The notes under the pieces were generated by a model, which was not told the DNA's origin, did not search any database, and was given only the letters and a program-made list of their open reading frames with translations. A program made the translations under genes and the position numbers. From assembly GCA_016208495.1 (NCBI GenBank), contig JACQXX010000007.1:1-64000 (forward strand): DNA of 64,000 nucleotides. The letters run 5' to 3'. The stretch comes from Acidobacteriota bacterium. GTDB taxonomy: Bacteria; Acidobacteriota; Blastocatellia; Chloracidobacteriales; Chloracidobacteriaceae. Below are positions 14,282 through 28,712 of the stretch, piece after piece (positions within the stretch are counted from its first letter, which is position 1; the number at the start of each line of letters is the position of its first letter).

Positions 14282-14406
14282 AATAGTTCACTAAGTTTAT
14301 TTGATTGAATCACTTGACTATGCTCTAACACGAGGGGGGGGATTGCAAACTGGTATCATTCAGGGTTTAGAGATCTGAGGTTTCGAGGAGTAAGCCTTCC
14401 TAAACC

Positions 14407-14446
14407 AAAAAGGGCAGCCTGCCTGATAGCACGGTTGCCCTTTTTT
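14407..14446 (+). terminator. Rho-independent terminator
   Basis: AAAAGGGCAGCC pairs with GGTTGCCCTTTT (12 bp with one G.T pair) around a 13-nt loop and runs into TTTTTTCTTT. It separates the exported-protein cluster from the accessory cassette that starts at 14499, so the cassette probably has its own promoter between here and 14499 or relies on read-through. Confidence 0.8.
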
Positions 14447-14498
14447 CTTTGGTGTGGGAAATTCAGGAGCAGTAAATTCAAAGCAGACGAGGAATCCA

Positions 14499-17177
14499 AT
14501 GACAGACGATTTGATCCCTGTAAATAGTGAGTACGAAACGTTTTTCCACGATCTCAAAGCACATATTCAGCAATCGCAAATTCGCACTGTCCTGGGTGTG
14601 AATCGAGAACTGGTTATGCTGTACTGGCACATTGGGTGTGAAATTCAGGAACGGCAAAAACGACAGGGGTGGGGCGCGAAAATCATTGATCGTCTAGCGG
14701 CGGATCTCAGCCGTGAATTCCCGGAAATGAAAGGCTTTTCGTCGCGAAACCTGAAGTATATGCGTGCTCTGGCGGAGGCTTATCCTGACGAACAATTTGT
14801 GCAACAGCTTGTTGCACAAATTCCCTGGGGGCATAATTTGCGCATTTTGGAAGGAGTCAAATCCCCGGTTGAGCGCGAGTGGTATGTCCGTCAAACCATT
14901 GAAAATGGATGGAGTCGCAATGTTTTAACTCATCAAATTGAAAGTCGTCTCTATCACCGCCAGGGACAGGCCATCACAAATTTCACGCACGCTTTACCCG
15001 CGACTCAATCAGAACTGGCACACCAAATTCTCAAGGATCCGTACAATTTTGATTTTTTATCACTCGGGAAAGACGCTTATGAGCGTGACCTGGAGCGTGG
15101 GCTGCTTGAATACATCGGAAAATTTCTGACAGAACTTGGCGTTGGATTTGCTTTTGTCGGCAGTCACTATCGTCTGACAATCGGCAACTTTGATTTCTAT
15201 CTTGACCTGCTGTTTTATCACACCAAATTGCATTGCTATGTGGCCGTGGATCTGAAGATTGGTGAGTTTGAACCTGAATTTGCTGGCAAGATGAACTTCT
15301 ATCTCTCGGCTCTGGATGATCGGGTCAAAGGGCCGGAGGATAATCCTTCCATTGGGCTCATCTTGTGTAAATCCCAGGATAAAACCATTGCTGAATATGC
15401 GCTTCGGGATATGGCAAAACCGTTGGGTGTTGCGACGTACCAGATTGTCGAAGCCATGCCGGAGCAATATCACCGATTACTCCCACAAGTTGAAGAAATT
15501 GAGCAGGGGCTGACTTCAGAAATTGACTGGGATGTATTTACACCTCGGCCAACTTACTGGTTTGAATCGGAAGTGGCATACGAAGGTCACGGTGAGGCGA
15601 TTTTTTCAACCCCAGAAGGGAAAATCGAAGGGCCAGTGATTGTGCGGTTCAATGAATTTGGCCAGCCGTACGTCGAAATGAAGGTGGAAAAGATCGAAAC
15701 TCCAGTTCCATTGACCTTTGGGTTACATGAACTGCTCAGTGGGCAATCTCCCATCCATCGCCCCAAAAAGATCATTTTGATGATGGGGGCACAGATCAAT
15801 AATGTTTGCGTTCAACTGGATGTTAAAACAGCGCATGGTTTGTTCCATGCTGATGGGAATGTTCGGTATGGATATTCATCAGGTTTGACCGGAGGGACTG
15901 GCAAGGTCATTTTTTACCCTTCATGGTCACAGTATGATTCTACAACTGCTTCATCTCCAAGATATTGGGTGCTTCCACTCATCAATTTCCTGACAGATTT
16001 TGGACAACACCACGAAGCTCTTGACTCTCATCCACTTCGGGTTTTTCCCACTCCCCGTATTCCACCAGGGCTTTCAGCTCACGAGAAAGCAATGGCTCAA
16101 TTTCAAGCCAATTCAAAAAACAAACTGGTTATTTTTGAATTCAGCGGAAGTTTAGGTTTTATCGAAGCATTGCCTGAGTACCAGGAAAAAAGCGATCAGC
16201 TTCTTGCCAAACAGGTTCCAATGGCGGTGACGGCCATGATGGTTGGGGAGCTTGGAACCCATTCAATTGACTTCCCAAGAACAAGTGAACAGAAGGTTGA
16301 ATGGTTTCCAGGACGATTTCTTGATTTGCTTGGGCTCGCAACCGGTGTACAAGTTGGGATTCCCTGGGTTGAGTTTCGAGACTCAAACGGCAAACTGATC
16401 CGACGACTTCACCTGCCAGTCAATCCGGGTGCCTATCAAAGAGGTCAAAATGTCCTTGGACCACATAATTACCAGGGATTAAGTCATTTATTGACCAGGA
16501 GCTGGCTGGCAACGGATGTCCCAGGGGCACTGATCCATGTCAGCATCAGACACATTCTTTTGGGTGGAAGTTATGAACAACACCTTGAGGAAAAGATTCT
16601 CTTTTTACACCGTGCTGTCAGAAGTTTATATGACGGACTTTTGAAGTCTTCGGTCCCTCTGGTTGAAGCTCTTGATCCAAAGCAAAGCCAGAAGATCCAA
16701 AAACTTCTGGTTTCGACAGCAAAGAAAATCCAGTCAATGACCGATTCAGAGAGTGACCTCTCCAACCAGGCACTCACTGCGCTTGCGGCTTATCTGTTGG
16801 ATATCAAAAACTGTAAAGAACCATTGGAACTCGTTTTAGCCCGGTTATTTGAACACTTTGACATTCCGGATGTTGAAATCTTAAACCGACACTATCAGGA
16901 AAACCCCCGTCCTGACGGTTTGCAGTGGCTCCAGGTTGTCGCCAAATACTGCATGGCCCCACTCGAAGACGGGTACTTTCACATTACGGAAAAGCGACAT
17001 GACCTTGAGGATGTAGTGAAAATTGGTCAACACCTCCACGATATTCTGGTTCGGATCATGCTCAAGCTTCTGAAATATGACTTTGAGTACAACCCAACAG
17101 TCATCGCCAGCGTGGCTCGATTCCCTGTTGACTGGGTGAATGCTGAGACCACAGCCGAGGACCTCGGTTATGAATAG
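14499..17177 (+). CDS. YhcG/DUF1016-type PD-(D/E)xK nuclease fused to a large unknown C-terminal region
   Basis: An 892-residue cytoplasmic protein. ATG at 14499 follows GAGG at 6 bases; the frame could extend to GTG 14454 but that lacks a ribosome site. Residues 8-155 match the helical N-terminal part of DUF1016 (YWHIGCEI, GWGAKIIDRLA-DLS, GFSSRNLKYM, IPWGHNLRIL). Residues 165-330 are the nuclease part: DFYLDLLFYHTKLHCYVAVD with D250-x-K252 (family usually E-x-K) and FEPEFAGKMNFYL. Known YhcG proteins are about 330-380 residues, so the 550 residues after about 345 are an extension. It starts beta-rich (EVAYEGHGEAIFSTPEGKIE) and ends helical; I do not recognise it and see no Rx4-6H HEPN motif. 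Read as a fused nuclease effector and sensor, possibly anti-phage; inference. Followed at 45 bp by the 17223 gene. Confidence 0.85.
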   Translation: MTDDLIPVNSEYETFFHDLKAHIQQSQIRTVLGVNRELVMLYWHIGCEIQERQKRQGWGAKIIDRLAADLSREFPEMKGFSSRNLKYMRALAEAYPDEQFVQQLVAQIPWGHNLRILEGVKSPVEREWYVRQTIENGWSRNVLTHQIESRLYHRQGQAITNFTHALPATQSELAHQILKDPYNFDFLSLGKDAYERDLERGLLEYIGKFLTELGVGFAFVGSHYRLTIGNFDFYLDLLFYHTKLHCYVAVDLKIGEFEPEFAGKMNFYLSALDDRVKGPEDNPSIGLILCKSQDKTIAEYALRDMAKPLGVATYQIVEAMPEQYHRLLPQVEEIEQGLTSEIDWDVFTPRPTYWFESEVAYEGHGEAIFSTPEGKIEGPVIVRFNEFGQPYVEMKVEKIETPVPLTFGLHELLSGQSPIHRPKKIILMMGAQINNVCVQLDVKTAHGLFHADGNVRYGYSSGLTGGTGKVIFYPSWSQYDSTTASSPRYWVLPLINFLTDFGQHHEALDSHPLRVFPTPRIPPGLSAHEKAMAQFQANSKNKLVIFEFSGSLGFIEALPEYQEKSDQLLAKQVPMAVTAMMVGELGTHSIDFPRTSEQKVEWFPGRFLDLLGLATGVQVGIPWVEFRDSNGKLIRRLHLPVNPGAYQRGQNVLGPHNYQGLSHLLTRSWLATDVPGALIHVSIRHILLGGSYEQHLEEKILFLHRAVRSLYDGLLKSSVPLVEALDPKQSQKIQKLLVSTAKKIQSMTDSESDLSNQALTALAAYLLDIKNCKEPLELVLARLFEHFDIPDVEILNRHYQENPRPDGLQWLQVVAKYCMAPLEDGYFHITEKRHDLEDVVKIGQHLHDILVRIMLKLLKYDFEYNPTVIASVARFPVDWVNAETTAEDLGYE

Positions 17178-17222
17178 GTGTTTGGTTGTGTTGTTCTGTA
17201 TTTGTTTGGGGGGAGTGTCGTT

Positions 17223-17723
17223 GTGTTAAACGAAAATGAACAGAAGGAAGAATTTAGCTTTGCATATATTCAAGCCATTGCTGCGACGGCTGGATATCAA
17301 GTTGAACGACCACAACGTGATAAACAAAGTGTTGATTTGAAAATTGTAGCTTACAGTGCACAGGGGTGGCCCCCAGATCTAGAAATTCTTATTCAAGTAA
17401 AATGTACCGCTTCCCAGACCGCTTTAGGTGATAAAGAGGTTAAATTTGTATTGAAAGCCAATAATTACAATGATTTGCGCAAAGATGGAATTCTTCCTCG
17501 GATTCTGATAGTTGTTTTAGTTCCTCAAAATATGGCTGATTGGGTTGAACCTTCAGAACAACAACTCATTTTAAGGCATTGTGCTTATTGGATAGATCTT
17601 CGAGGACGAGTGGAAATAAAAAACACTGAGTCAATAACCATTCATATCCCTCGCAAAAATCAATTTACAGTTCAATCTTTACAAGAAATAGTAGCTCGCT
17701 TTCAACAAGAGATGCAGGGATAA
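17223..17723 (+). CDS. DUF4365-like PD-(D/E)xK-fold protein
   Basis: A 166-residue protein. GTG at 17223 was chosen because GGGGGGAG lies 7 bases upstream; the frame reaches back to 17178 next to the previous stop. The pattern E-x-x-S-x-x-YIQAIAATAGYQ, then D37 in QSVDLKI, then ILIQVKC (Q-x-K near 57-59) matches DUF4365, a nuclease-like fold found in defence loci and fused to NTPases. Here the domain stands alone. The acid in E-x-K is replaced by Gln, common in this family. It lies 45 bp after the fused nuclease and 29 bp before the next gene, so the three probably form an operon. Its codons are clearly richer in A/T than the flanking exported-protein genes, which hints at transfer. Confidence 0.75.
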   Translation: MLNENEQKEEFSFAYIQAIAATAGYQVERPQRDKQSVDLKIVAYSAQGWPPDLEILIQVKCTASQTALGDKEVKFVLKANNYNDLRKDGILPRILIVVLVPQNMADWVEPSEQQLILRHCAYWIDLRGRVEIKNTESITIHIPRKNQFTVQSLQEIVARFQQEMQG

Positions 17724-17752
17724 TAGACTTATCAGGTGGAGGAAGACCGGTT

Positions 17753-18673
17753 ATGCAATCAGCCATATTACCCAGTGAAATCCAAAATGTTGGGCCGCTC
17801 AATTTGAGTGACTATCTGAAAAAAACTGGATGGAAACAAGAGCGTGAACTCCCAGAAAGAGTGTCTTTTTGGGTGAACCATGATCAGGGGGCAACCCAAC
17901 GTAGAATTTTACTTCCTTTGCAGGAACACTTCTTTGATTTTGAAATGTGTATAGAAAAAGCTTTAAAAACCTTGGAAGCCTTTGAGCACCGCCCTCAATC
18001 TGAAATTCTGCAAGATATTGTGTCACCTGGAATTGATGTGATTCGCATTCGGCTGGATCAACCTGTAAATTGGAGAAATGGTATTCCACTCCAGCAAAGC
18101 CTTGCACTCACACAAACCATCGAGAAAATGCTCAAGATAGCAGCTTTACAGGTAGTAGATTCTCAGATGGAAACGTCGTCTTCTGGTTCTGTACTTGCAA
18201 ATGAGTTTCTGGATAGAATTCAGATCCAGATACACCATAATGAAAAACTCGAAATTGAATTAGTCTCTCCACTTCCTAAACCAGATTCTTCAATTCCCCA
18301 GGCAGTACCATTTGAGCGCAAGGTCGTGGATGTGCTTGCTGCGCAACTGACTACTTTGCAGGCTGGCATCACTCCATTTCCACCTCCTGAGCTTTTCCAA
18401 ACTCTAAATGAAATGAGAAAAGTGGGTGTCACTCGCAACCTATGTGAAACCATTACTGGATTGGGAAATTTCAGTAGGGATGAGGTTGAGTTTGGTATAT
18501 CCAGATCAAGAAAATTACCCGCCGAGAGCTACGTCAAAAAAACAATTCACTTTTCGAGTGATGATCTCCAAAAAATCAAAGAGTTGAATTCCTGGTTTGA
18601 TTTATTTGAAAGAACTGCTTGCCCCAATAGTTTTCAAGCTGGAATGCCAAATGAATTTGGAGTTACTCATTAA
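17753..18673 (+). CDS. Unknown protein, third gene of nuclease cassette
   Basis: A 306-residue soluble protein with a good start (GGAGG before ATG 17753). I do not recognise the family. It has no signal peptide or membrane segment. Visible: an N-terminal LSDYLKKTGWKQE-LPERVSFW motif and an acidic-hydrophobic middle (DIVSPGIDVIRIRLDQPVNW). A helical stretch with EKMLKIAALQ and a C-terminal EVEFGISRSRKLPAESYVKK segment follow. The end (GMPNEFGVTH) is abrupt, so a truncated tail is possible. Spacing and AT-rich codons tie it to the DUF4365-like gene upstream. A regulator, immunity or target-recognition partner for the nucleases is conceivable, but nothing in the sequence decides this. Confidence 0.7.
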   Translation: MQSAILPSEIQNVGPLNLSDYLKKTGWKQERELPERVSFWVNHDQGATQRRILLPLQEHFFDFEMCIEKALKTLEAFEHRPQSEILQDIVSPGIDVIRIRLDQPVNWRNGIPLQQSLALTQTIEKMLKIAALQVVDSQMETSSSGSVLANEFLDRIQIQIHHNEKLEIELVSPLPKPDSSIPQAVPFERKVVDVLAAQLTTLQAGITPFPPPELFQTLNEMRKVGVTRNLCETITGLGNFSRDEVEFGISRSRKLPAESYVKKTIHFSSDDLQKIKELNSWFDLFERTACPNSFQAGMPNEFGVTH

Positions 18674-18743
18674 TGGTGGTTTAAGTTAGACATCAATGCC
18701 CCTTTAAAATACTACTTCCTCCAGCATAACTATTTAATTTTCT

Positions 18744-19919
18744 ATGAAATGCAGCCGATGCGCGGTTGACAACAATCTACAGGACCGAACGGCTTCAAAC
18801 GGGAAATGCAAGTCCTGTCAGCATCCCTTTACCTTTGATCCAAAGCAGCCGACGGCACTGAGTACCACCAACACTGAACTCCATTTTACTGATCCGTTTT
18901 TTCAAACAGCCCTGACCACTATTACTGCGAATGAATCACTCTTTTTTACCGTCAAGCAGTTCTATTACCAGATGAATCAGCGGTTTATCCGAAAGTCGCA
19001 CCGTGAAACCGGCTGTCTGATCAATGGTTTAATCGTTGGGGGTGGGTTCTTTTTGTTCTTTATCTTCAGTGGTTTGGCGAAGGTACTGATTCCCGTTACG
19101 ATTGTGCTTTTGATTTTTGCCCTGATTGGGTTCAACGTGTACTGGAGAACTCCCCACGTCAAACGGAAGTTCTTTTCAAATCGGAAACAGCGTGACCTTC
19201 CAGCCGCCCCCAAACTGGTCAAAGGCTGGCTTGATGCCTGGGCCCGAAACAACGGTCCGATTGCAAAATTGCTTCCGCCGCCGCCGCCGCCGACACAAAT
19301 CATTGCTCCCGCCTCGGTGAATCCTGAAGTGACGGTCTATAGTTTTGACCGACTGGTGGTGACCGATACTCCGGTGATGGCTCAATTTTTGCTGGCCAAC
19401 AACTTTCATTTTGAAAACAACTGCGCGGTACTTTGTATTGATAAATACCCGTACGACCTGTTCTGGACGGTGATGAAAATGCTGCGCCGCAACCCGGAAC
19501 TCAAAGTGTATGCGGTCCACGATGCGTCACCGTTTGGGGTTCACCTGGTTCATCGGCTTCGCACGGAAGCTGACTGGTTTGCCAACCAGCCAAACGTCAC
19601 GATTTATGATTTAGGAATTCTACCCAGGCAGGTGTTAGACCGCCCCGTGTTTGTCCAGCAATCTCCTGAATCGGCTCAGGCTGGTCGGAATATGGCTCAG
19701 CCAGTGCTGGCAGCCCTTGATGTGACTGAAATTCAATGGCTACGGGATGGGTATTTTGTTGAATTGGAATCATTTGCGCCGCAGGCGCTCTTGCGAATGA
19801 TCACGATGGGCATTGCCCGGAGCCGTGATCCACGAGCTGGTGATTCATTGGTCCCGCTTGACCAGGATCCGCACTACACCGGCACGACCATGGTCTATGT
19901 GTCGGATTCGTTTGGCTAA
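18744..19919 (+). CDS. Zinc-ribbon membrane protein of unknown function
   Basis: A 391-residue protein. The N-terminus is a zinc ribbon (C-S-R-C at 3-6, C-K-S-C at about 26-29). Two adjacent hydrophobic segments at about 93-140 (GLIVGGGFFLFFIFSGLA, then VTIVLLIFALIGFNVYW) make a hairpin in the inner membrane. A run of six prolines (about 175-180) leads into a C-terminal domain of some 200 residues. That domain contains LCIDKYPYDLFWTVMKML and a motif VYAVHDASPFGVHLVHRL. The last faintly recalls the acidic loop of Toprim or Spo11-like folds (D-x-x-P-x-G); I regard this as a lead, not an assignment. Gene order gives no clear partner; it converges on the 20073 gene. Confidence 0.75.
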   Translation: MKCSRCAVDNNLQDRTASNGKCKSCQHPFTFDPKQPTALSTTNTELHFTDPFFQTALTTITANESLFFTVKQFYYQMNQRFIRKSHRETGCLINGLIVGGGFFLFFIFSGLAKVLIPVTIVLLIFALIGFNVYWRTPHVKRKFFSNRKQRDLPAAPKLVKGWLDAWARNNGPIAKLLPPPPPPTQIIAPASVNPEVTVYSFDRLVVTDTPVMAQFLLANNFHFENNCAVLCIDKYPYDLFWTVMKMLRRNPELKVYAVHDASPFGVHLVHRLRTEADWFANQPNVTIYDLGILPRQVLDRPVFVQQSPESAQAGRNMAQPVLAALDVTEIQWLRDGYFVELESFAPQALLRMITMGIARSRDPRAGDSLVPLDQDPHYTGTTMVYVSDSFG

Positions 19920-27021: not shown

Positions 27022-27846
27022 GTGCTACACACTTGGAAAGCTCAACGGCTTGAAAAGATACTCACAACCGGACGGACCAAGCCATTGGTCATTGAATGTG
27101 AATATGTTTCCTCTCAGGCTTTTGGTGACAACAACGAGCAAGCCCCAAAACCGTCAGAGCGTCGGTTGTTCGTTGTTAAATCACCTGGGCATCCAGACGT
27201 AACAGATCAAGGTTTATTTTCTGAGCTTTTTGGGAATCTGCTTGGGCGTCAATTAGGGCTTAAAACACCTGAGCCTGCTTTGGTAACCTTGAACCAAGCT
27301 TTTGTCGAAGCCACAAAACCAAGTGTTGTCGGGAATAATATCAATTTATCACCTGGGCAAGGTGTTGGATGTGAATACCTTGCCCGAGGCTTAACTTCTG
27401 TGGTTCCTTGGGTTGATTTGCCAAATACCCAGATACAACAAGCCGTAATTTTGTACGCATTTGACCTTTTAGTCCAAAACCCAGATCGTCGGCCTAACAA
27501 AGTGAATTGTGCGATTCATTCTGGTGATTTGATCGCCTTTGACTTCGAACTTTGCTTCAGTTTTTTGTATCCGCTACTCGGAAAACAGCTCGTCCCTTGG
27601 GAAGTATCAACGCATGGAATTGCCCCTCAGCACTTGTTCTATCCCGTACTGAGAAAGAATCAACATATTGATTGGAAACCATTTATCGAACGCCTTCAAT
27701 CTCTTACTGAACATCATTTTGATCAACTGGCACAAGTACTGGTCCCAAACTGGCAAGATTTTGCAGAGAGAGTGCGAACTCATGTATTTGAGGTTATACT
27801 TCATGCCCCTCAGTTTGAGATGGAATTACAGAGGAGCCTGTTATGA
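27022..27846 (+). CDS. HipA-like kinase
   Basis: A 274-residue protein of the stand-alone HipA-like kinase type (PF20613-like), shorter than HipA (about 440). The GTG start at 27022 has AAGGA 8 bases upstream. Visible kinase elements: FVVKSPG with a candidate ATP-binding Lys near 52, SELFGNLLGRQLGLKTPEPA, the catalytic loop QNPDRRPNKVN (D155, N160), and AFDFELCF (D174) as metal-binding segment. These proteins often pair with DUF3037, as here: the next ATG overlaps this stop codon. HipA kinases phosphorylate translation factors and act as toxins in persistence or defence. Whether this one is toxic is unknown. Codons are AT-rich next to the nuoI and ureohydrolase genes. Confidence 0.8.
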   Translation: MLHTWKAQRLEKILTTGRTKPLVIECEYVSSQAFGDNNEQAPKPSERRLFVVKSPGHPDVTDQGLFSELFGNLLGRQLGLKTPEPALVTLNQAFVEATKPSVVGNNINLSPGQGVGCEYLARGLTSVVPWVDLPNTQIQQAVILYAFDLLVQNPDRRPNKVNCAIHSGDLIAFDFELCFSFLYPLLGKQLVPWEVSTHGIAPQHLFYPVLRKNQHIDWKPFIERLQSLTEHHFDQLAQVLVPNWQDFAERVRTHVFEVILHAPQFEMELQRSLL

Positions 27847-28712
27847 GCGAGCTTTCATATACCTATAGCATCATTCGGTACGTTCATGACCCGGCAGTGG
27901 GTGAATCTCTAAACATTGGCGTTATTTTGTGGGCACCATCGGTCCGTTTTTTGGATGTCAAGTTTGAGCACCGCTATCATCGTCTTTCCAAAACCTTTAT
28001 CGAATTTGACGGTGAGCACTACAAGGCAACACTGTGTCAATTTGAACAGGCATTGGAAAGGGTAAAAGATCAACTTCGATGTCAAAGAATGGGACTATTT
28101 GAAATTCACAATGTCCCAACCAACCTGACCGGAATTGTTTCCCAAATCTGGCCAGATGAGGGATTGAGTTTTCAATTTGGGCAGAGTTGGTCGGGTATTA
28201 CATCAGACCCACAATCAGCACTGAATGAGATCTTTGAACGAATGGTGGCCTCACAGTGCCCAATCACCAAGGCTGAGACCCGCACAGATGAAGACGTCTG
28301 GATAACTTATAATCGCTCGCTAACAAATCTCAATTTGCATAAAAGGTTATCGTCATACACCTTAACCACAGATGATATAACCTTGAGATATAACCATGCC
28401 TTTAAAAACGAACGCTGGCATCTTTTAGAACCAGTTTCAATGGATTATACCACTGCAAGCCGCATTCAGACGAAAGCCACACACCTATTAGGGGATGCGA
28501 CAGCAATTGAAGGACATCCAGAAATAGGCACTTTATATTTATTACTTGGTCAACCCCGTGAAGCAAAACATTGGCCAGCTTACATCAAGGCAAAAAATCT
28601 CCTTCATAAGAAAATCCCTCTTGATCATAAACTGATTGAAGAAAATGAAGCTGACGATTTCGCTAAATATCTTCAGGCATATATGATTGAGCACGGCTTA
28701 ATTGAGAAATAG
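27843..28712 (+). CDS. DUF3037 family protein
   Basis: A 289-residue cytoplasmic protein whose ATGA start overlaps the stop of the HipA-like kinase gene, so translation is probably coupled. The N-terminus TYSIIRYVHDPAVGESLNIG followed by VILWAP is the hallmark of DUF3037. Typical DUF3037 proteins are 120-300 residues, so the length is normal. After about 130 the sequence is less conserved, with a mid-helical part and an acidic end. The HipA-like/DUF3037 pair recurs in many bacteria as a two-gene unit. An antitoxin or substrate-presenting role is plausible but not established. Confidence 0.82.
   Translation: MSELSYTYSIIRYVHDPAVGESLNIGVILWAPSVRFLDVKFEHRYHRLSKTFIEFDGEHYKATLCQFEQALERVKDQLRCQRMGLFEIHNVPTNLTGIVSQIWPDEGLSFQFGQSWSGITSDPQSALNEIFERMVASQCPITKAETRTDEDVWITYNRSLTNLNLHKRLSSYTLTTDDITLRYNHAFKNERWHLLEPVSMDYTTASRIQTKATHLLGDATAIEGHPEIGTLYLLLGQPREAKHWPAYIKAKNLLHKKIPLDHKLIEENEADDFAKYLQAYMIEHGLIEK

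What the first reader, a model, noticed from the sequence alone, without database searches (positions are those of the whole stretch)
14499..18673. Candidate undescribed nuclease cassette: YhcG fusion + DUF4365-like + unknown partner
Seen: three closely spaced genes (45 and 29 bp gaps) behind a strong terminator, with AT-rich codons in the last two unlike the flanking genes. The first fuses a DUF1016/YhcG nuclease (DxK site) to about 550 unrecognised residues; the second is a stand-alone DUF4365 nuclease-like protein (QxK); the third is unknown. Known: YhcG and DUF4365 domains recur in restriction and phage-defence loci. Inferred: two nuclease-fold proteins plus a partner behave as one defence or element-control module.
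Basis: partly seen in the sequence, partly recalled or inferred. Interest (0 to 1): 0.85.

Follow-up and report, generated by a model that had tools for sequence, protein, structure and literature searches.

The report
Known nuclease pair beside fused nuclease
Three neighbouring bacterial genes look like phage-defence parts: the last two are a widespread, already catalogued but unstudied nuclease-plus-partner pair (here with the partner's tail missing), while the first is a separate nuclease joined to a large stretch of unknown protein.

Summary
The three genes are real and placed as described. Genes 2 and 3 are not undescribed: they match PADLOC's unnamed candidate system PDC-M02. Of 80 loci found with gene 2, 78 carry a gene-3 relative: 76 directly downstream, one fused, one 322 bases on beside a broken nuclease frame. 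The nuclease residues D37, Q57, K59 never vary where aligned (82/82, 85/85, 85/85) and fit the QxK site of DUF4365-APAZ in short-Argonaute immunity (PMC10810196, passages). A full-length partner is predicted to end in an OB fold, as in SSB, PriB and RPA; the window's partner stops before it, so this copy may be altered or decayed. Gene 1 is a YhcG nuclease (PDC-S02) in one frame with 547 residues for which I found no family or relative. YhcG was seen near only 3 of 80 PDC-M02 loci, and its base composition differs, so a three-gene module is not supported. Best reading: a two-gene DNase with an OB-type sensor partner that attacks phage DNA or the infected cell, beside an unrelated fused YhcG. 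No function was tested.

The parts
14400..14455 (+). Terminator-like hairpin with T tract, upstream of gene 1
   Evidence: -26.5 kcal/mol, z -5.5, 0 of 200 shuffles as good; not listed by the scan (loops of 3-8 only)
14499..15533 (+). Gene 1, residues 1-345: DUF1016_N + YhcG PD-(D/E)XK nuclease
   Evidence: PF17761 4.5e-47, PF06250 1.7e-60; PADLOC PDC-S02 3.5e-153, residues 8-339
15534..17177 (+). Gene 1, residues 346-892 + stop: 547-residue extension in the same frame, no known family
   Evidence: no family hit above cut-off; no relative; codon-position base bias; single-sequence model unusable (pLDDT 34)
17223..17723 (+). Gene 2: stand-alone DUF4365 nuclease (PDC-M02A), 166 residues; site D37, Q57-x-K59 (numbered from the codon at 17226). 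GTG start inferred from the alignment and a G-rich stretch upstream
   Evidence: PF14280 2.6e-23; PDLC04278 5.3e-56
17753..18673 (+). Gene 3: partner PDC-M02B; N-terminal and middle regions present, C-terminal OB-fold domain absent; about two dozen unmatched residues at the end
   Evidence: PDLC04298 2e-45, residues 8-277 to profile 9-281 of 380

Best explanation
Two independent loci sit side by side. (1) Genes 2+3 are a member of the catalogued candidate defence system PDC-M02. The DUF4365 protein is a PD-(D/E)XK-type DNase with a QxK site. It is held and switched by its partner, whose N-terminal region (kept in the copies compared) probably binds the nuclease and whose C-terminal OB domain, where present, probably senses a nucleic acid made during infection (single-stranded phage DNA is the obvious guess). 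Activated, the nuclease cuts DNA, stopping the phage or the infected cell. This would be like DUF4365-APAZ in SPARDA, with an OB-type partner in place of Argonaute. In this genome the partner has lost the OB domain, so this copy is either decayed or reads another trigger through its middle region. (2) Gene 1 is a YhcG nuclease read in one frame with a 547-residue region of unknown origin; it is not part of PDC-M02. Shown by computation: families, gene pairing, invariant site, predicted partner fold, missing domain. Inferred: complex formation, trigger, outcome, defence role.
For: PADLOC matches. Partner match in 78 of 80 loci; in 63 of the 75 loci with a single unfused partner the genes overlap by four bases. 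One locus (L041, Scytonema) reads A and B as one 343-residue frame with both profiles in order. Site D/Q/K in 82/82, 85/85, 85/85 of the rows with a residue there, 91 rows in all; QxK is the proposed active site, mutated as the inactive form, of a DUF4365-APAZ protein that degrades DNA on activation (PMC10810196, passages). OB fold in the full-length model of L082, mean pLDDT 90.6: S. coelicolor SSB Z 9.1 (rmsd 2.9, 81 aligned), P. abyssi RPA Z 8.5 (2.3, 77), PriB Z 8.4 (3.0, 79). Both genes side by side in two temperate-phage kinds, 4 of 4 phage records matched (one record of each kind opened), and in 6 of 9 plasmid records with a partner match. Neighbours of 16 non-cyanobacterial pairs include type I and II methyltransferases, a specificity subunit, BrxA, BrxB, a GajB-like helicase, a DRT-type protein and three integrases (lists capped at 25 families).
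Against: No experiment links PDC-M02 to defence; the PADLOC entry is a candidate. The neighbour scan had no control set. Of ten neighbours looked at singly, five matched nothing at 1e-10. The best structural match of the OB domain is SilF, solved in silver and copper forms (Z 10.2, rmsd 2.1, 74 aligned), Foldseek had no match at E 0.001 or better, and OB folds of toxin subunits and tRNA synthetases are in the same list, so nucleic-acid sensing is a guess. 62 of 80 loci are cyanobacterial by title and all 57 short partners are among them; the pair may do something else there. Two loci lack the partner (L062, L074). The window's pair lacks the OB domain and has a 29-base gap, so this copy may be dead. 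The pair is rare near home: gene 3 rang in 2 of 162 genomes of the class, own included. A pattern scan of viral contigs found no relative.
Confidence: 0.6

Rival explanations
1. The three genes are one three-protein defence or element-control module, the YhcG fusion acting with the DUF4365 pair.
For: Same strand, 45 and 29 base gaps; all three have lower GC3 than the flanks measured; YhcG 1.6-2.4 kb upstream of the pair in L025, L041 and L072.
Against: 3 of 80 loci, none adjacent, all three cyanobacterial; GC3 0.47/0.45 against 0.24/0.35; YhcG occurs in many genomes of the phylum (31 of 247 over the cut-off) where gene 3 is rare (2 of 162 of the class). A 2005 survey saw no obvious association of YhcG with conserved genes (PMC1189080, passages).
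Confidence: 0.12
2. The window locus is a decaying remnant: a once full pair that lost the OB domain, beside an accidental YhcG read-through into a neighbouring gene.
For: No other partner of this length among the 80 loci; the second pair of the same genome is also cut at its 3' end (L022); the genome holds broken YhcG-like stretches on another contig; the extension was found nowhere else.
Against: All frames are open, the nuclease site of gene 2 is intact, gene 1's two halves have like GC3 and the extension keeps a base bias by codon position.
Confidence: 0.25
3. PDC-M02 is a toxin-antitoxin-like addiction or control module of mobile elements (nuclease restrained by its partner), not a phage sensor.
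For: Pairs on plasmids and temperate phages; the partner's N-terminal part alone can persist (L022).
Against: 76 of 80 loci have a partner of a length class that carries the OB end where I looked (57 short, 18 full, 1 fused; OB end seen by model in L082 and by profile in L025 and L041), more than an antitoxin needs; some neighbours are restriction and BREX genes.
Confidence: 0.2

Closest known systems
PADLOC candidate PDC-M02 (A + B)
   Same: Both proteins, their order and strand
   Different: Partner here lacks the C-terminal OB domain and the genes are 29 bases apart, where 63 of 75 single unfused pairs overlap by four
SPARDA / TmuRE-Ago (DUF4365-APAZ + short Argonaute)
   Same: DUF4365 nuclease domain with a QxK site; a second protein controls it there (passages) and by inference here
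   Different: Nuclease stands alone, without room for APAZ; the partner's profile matched no solved chain at E 1 or better and no Argonaute is among the 50 fold rows shown, which does not exclude one
YhcG / PF06250, PADLOC PDC-S02
   Same: Full DUF1016_N + nuclease domains
   Different: 547 further residues; among 49 above-cut-off YhcG_C matches in 247 genomes of the phylum this frame (915, stop to stop) is the longest, the next is 509

Membership tests
PDC-M02 | PDC-M02A match (DUF4365) | tested here: met
   PDLC04278 5.3e-56, residues 1-162
PDC-M02 | PDC-M02B match next to A | tested here: met
   PDLC04298 2e-45, 29 bases downstream; profile positions 9-281 of 380 only. PADLOC's own system rule was not at hand
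PDC-M02 | Anti-phage activity | not testable with these tools
   candidate system only
PDC-M02 sub-group with OB-ended partner (my own grouping, not a PADLOC rule) | C-terminal OB domain on the partner | tested here: not met
SPARDA | DUF4365 with QxK site | tested here: met
SPARDA | APAZ domain on the nuclease and adjacent short Argonaute | tested here: not met
   gene 2 has 166 residues, DUF4365 covering nearly all; gene 3 matches PDC-M02B and no Pfam family at E 1
YhcG (PF06250) | DUF1016_N + YhcG_C | tested here: met
   both far above cut-off
ApeA-like HEPN (for the extension) | Sequence similarity to ApeA proteins | tested here: not met
   against 8 ApeA-type frames: hhalign probability 0.1%, hmmsearch E 0.15 and phmmer E 0.25 on tiny databases; Pfam no hit; fold not testable

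The most novel reading that the evidence does not exclude
PDC-M02 is an Argonaute-free counterpart in design of SPARDA: a DUF4365 DNase licensed by a modular OB-fold sensor, carried by temperate phages and plasmids and trimmed by domain (N+middle+OB, N+OB, N+middle, N only). The neighbouring YhcG fusion would be a new effector architecture with a wholly new 547-residue sensor region.
Probability: 0.3. Interest if true: 0.65.

Novelty: new variant of a known kind. Interest (0 to 1): 0.42.

Why it matters
DUF4365 nucleases are known as effectors of short-Argonaute immunity. A widespread stand-alone DUF4365 with an OB-fold partner would show a second way to trigger the same nuclease, and its natural domain losses say which part of the partner to test. 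The YhcG extension is a 547-residue orphan in a nuclease family whose role is still open.

Tried and rejected
Three-gene module: not supported, on 3 of 80 and GC3. ApeA/HEPN identity of the extension: tested because a single-sequence model suggested strands then helices (pLDDT 34, not usable) and because I recalled a like layout; unsupported (8 of the 10 matched frames were compared). Relatives of the extension: none in genome contigs or viral contigs by peptide patterns, plasmids, phages, 57 relatives plus own genome (9, only itself), 396 genomes of the phylum including own (18, only itself), 9 genomes by handle (53), 292 of the Scytonema phylum (55: one 47-residue match, E 0.0096, not followed up) and 398 of the Sphingomonas phylum (58: one match, E 0.006, which on reading is a repeat-rich protein). 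The phyla were sampled and the pattern scans need close relatives, so distant ones are not excluded. A remnant of the missing OB domain: the frames of 18501-18760 and the 70 bases before the next gene show none, and 18560-18760 has no repeat in the genome better than E 0.78. Viral contigs for gene 2: nothing. Gene 3 against phages with the window's own protein: nothing; the full-length L082 protein found four records. Empty-site comparison: the downstream gene has one relative (G010, 41%) among 14 related genomes, so no synteny test. Fold matches outside the OB domain were barely tested (one search says so). The whole partner resembles a Leptospira phage LE1 protein (E 4.9e-23), in line. No control was run for the neighbour scan. 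Papers: 'PDC-M02' 0 papers; DUF4365 10 papers, listing seen, PMC10810196 in passages; PMC12205087 listing only (searches failed); YhcG listing, 25 of 40, PMC1189080 in passages; passages of PMC11514479, PMC11719660, PMC11341870.
Full report
What is there. The window is contig C7:1-64000 of an 8.4 Mb genome. I take the phylum to be Acidobacteriota: a same-family genome holds a contig (L024) that is the same 7681-base contig as L086, whose record title carries 'WN_Acidobacteria' although it is filed as Actinomycetota; that name is a lead, not a test. Three genes lie on the + strand at 14499-17177, 17223-17723 and 17753-18673, behind a strong hairpin with a T tract.

Gene 1. Residues 19-154 and 176-328 are DUF1016_N and YhcG_C; PADLOC calls it PDC-S02 over residues 8-339 (25 of 31 matches shown, none of them in the extension). 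The frame then continues for 547 residues. These match nothing above cut-off in Pfam, NCBIfam or PHROGs and nothing shown from PADLOC (a lone Pfam hit at E 0.13 is below its cut-off), no solved structure (best E 0.61), and no relative was found in any collection searched (see Tried and rejected). The same genome has two further YhcG_C matches in ordinary frames of 385 and 396 residues (the first was read) and broken YhcG-like stretches on C92. In 247 genomes of the phylum 49 YhcG_C matches pass the cut-off; this frame (915 stop to stop) is the longest and the next is 509. The extension has the same GC3 as the YhcG part (0.45, 0.47) and unequal base use by codon position, as expected of coding sequence. 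Its fold could not be predicted from one sequence (pLDDT 34).

Gene 2. It is DUF4365 (PF14280 2.6e-23) and PADLOC PDC-M02A (5.3e-56). Across 91 rows (the query and the best A frame of 90 loci, L024 and L086 being one contig twice), D37 is kept in 82 of 82, Q57 in 85 of 85 and K59 in 85 of 85 rows that have a residue there; the others are gaps, in fragments. PMC10810196 (passages) names Q62 and K64 as the potential active site of the DUF4365 domain of TmuRE, uses the Q62A/K64A protein as the inactive mutant, and reports nonspecific DNA cleavage once the complex recognises its target. A weak profile match to EcoRV (E 0.12) fits a restriction-type fold but is not evidence alone.

Gene 3. It is PDC-M02B (2e-45) but covers only profile positions 9-281 of 380. 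Aligned with 22 full partners, it stops before the last conserved block. AlphaFold of a full partner (L082, 22-row alignment) is confident (mean pLDDT 90.6, pTM 0.83). Residues 309-395 are an OB fold: best matches SilF Z 10.2 (rmsd 2.1, 74 aligned), S. coelicolor SSB Z 9.1 (2.9, 81), P. abyssi RPA Z 8.5 (2.3, 77), PriB Z 8.4 (3.0, 79); Foldseek itself gave no PDB match at E 0.001 or better. That block is the one missing from the window's gene 3. A shared fold shows no function.

Pairing. A pattern scan of genome contigs with a four-sequence DUF4365 alignment gave 106 relatives; the best 80 were kept and examined, 62 of them cyanobacterial by title. A partner match (E 1e-3) was found in 78 of 80: 57 short (150-200 residues, all cyanobacterial), 18 full (360-410, none cyanobacterial), 2 split in two frames, 1 fused with the nuclease (L041), and none in 2 (L062, L074). 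Of the 75 single unfused partners, 63 overlap the nuclease gene by four bases, 11 lie between a longer overlap and a few bases away, and 1 (L091) is listed 322 bases on, beside a nuclease frame that is broken. Short partners match the profile's beginning and end but not its middle (L025: residues 1-93 to 1-91 in one model, 99-173 to 299-376 in another). The source genome's own second pair, on the same contig at and just past the window's end, keeps only the start of the partner (157 residues, best model 7-91). So the start of the partner is kept in each of these kinds, and both copies in this genome lack the OB end. Near home the partner is rare: 2 of 162 genomes of the class, own included. 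On plasmids, 6 of 9 records with a partner match have the nuclease match directly beside it (7 of the 9 opened). The other three are two Paenarthrobacter records, where the partner lies near the end of the record I opened so that its upstream side could not be read, and Pigmentibacter, where no A frame was found at 1e-5. In the phage collection 4 of 4 matched records (two M. abscessus prophage entries, two entries of Leptospira phage LE1) carry both; in the prophage they are genes 1 and 2 at the start of the record, in LE1 adjacent genes.

Neighbourhood. I scanned 87 genes of 100-900 residues, up to three on each side, from 16 of the 18 loci with a full partner (L089 gave none under these filters; L086 was left out). 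The lists show 25 of 227 PADLOC families and 25 of 86 Pfam families. PADLOC matches shown include type I methyltransferase (2 genes), a specificity subunit, a type II methyltransferase, BrxA, BrxB, a GajB-like helicase and an RT-helicase (DRT); Pfam shows integrases (3 genes), a DpnII/MboI nuclease, a MobA relaxase and a transposase, beside ordinary metabolic genes. Ten of the 87 looked at singly at 1e-10: BrxA in L097, weak Dpd-like matches in two genes of L098, mad2 and mad3 types in L081 and L101, nothing in five. There was no control set, so this is consistent with, not proof of, life in defence islands.

Is it one module? YhcG was found in 3 of the 80 loci (L025, L041, L072), 1.6-2.4 kb upstream of the nuclease and not adjacent; some loci are cut short by contig ends. 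Gene 1's GC3 is 0.47/0.45, genes 2 and 3 0.24 and 0.35, seven flanking genes 0.53-0.57; by codon score gene 1 looks native and genes 2-3 do not. The simplest account is two separate loci at one place.

How it most likely works. Shown by computation: the pair, its invariant nuclease site, a predicted OB domain on full and (by profile) short partners, the missing domain here. From the literature: DUF4365 with QxK is a DNase let loose by a partner in short-Argonaute systems. Inferred: the partner's start holds the nuclease, the OB end reads a nucleic acid made in infection, the nuclease then cuts DNA. The window's copy lacks the presumed reader, so it may be inactive or tuned otherwise.

Known or new. 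The pair is catalogued (PADLOC PDC-M02; PMC11514479 calls such PDC entries phage defence candidates, passages), but I found no paper on it: 'PDC-M02' 0 papers; 10 papers hold DUF4365, and none of their titles or abstract starts describes a stand-alone pair (preprints outside PMC and most subscription papers are not held). New here, as far as I saw, are the OB assignment, the modular partner, the fused and phage-borne examples and the orphan extension of YhcG.

Noticed in passing
27022-28712: HipA-like kinase + DUF3037 pair with low GC (0.44, 0.42); PADLOC candidate PDC-M66A/B (1.8e-41, 5.5e-56).
   Followed up: partly
L022:3998-4908 (contig C7, at and just past the window's end): Second PDC-M02 pair in the same genome, partner cut to about its first 85 profile positions plus a tail.
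   Followed up: partly
L023:7207-8215: Two overlapping DUF4365-type frames in tandem that match no PADLOC model at 1e-3.
   Followed up: no
L002 about 1432-1590 (contig C92): YhcG-like DNA matches (76% and 82%) behind a short YhcG-like start, in no long frame: broken YhcG remnants.
   Followed up: no
L041:8001-9032: Scytonema hyalinum MAG reads the nuclease and short partner as one 343-residue frame; could be a true fusion or a sequence error.
   Followed up: partly
18744-19919: Downstream gene: 391 residues, weak zinc-ribbon and Toprim-like hits below cut-off, one relative at 41% in 14 related genomes; backbone-like GC.
   Followed up: partly
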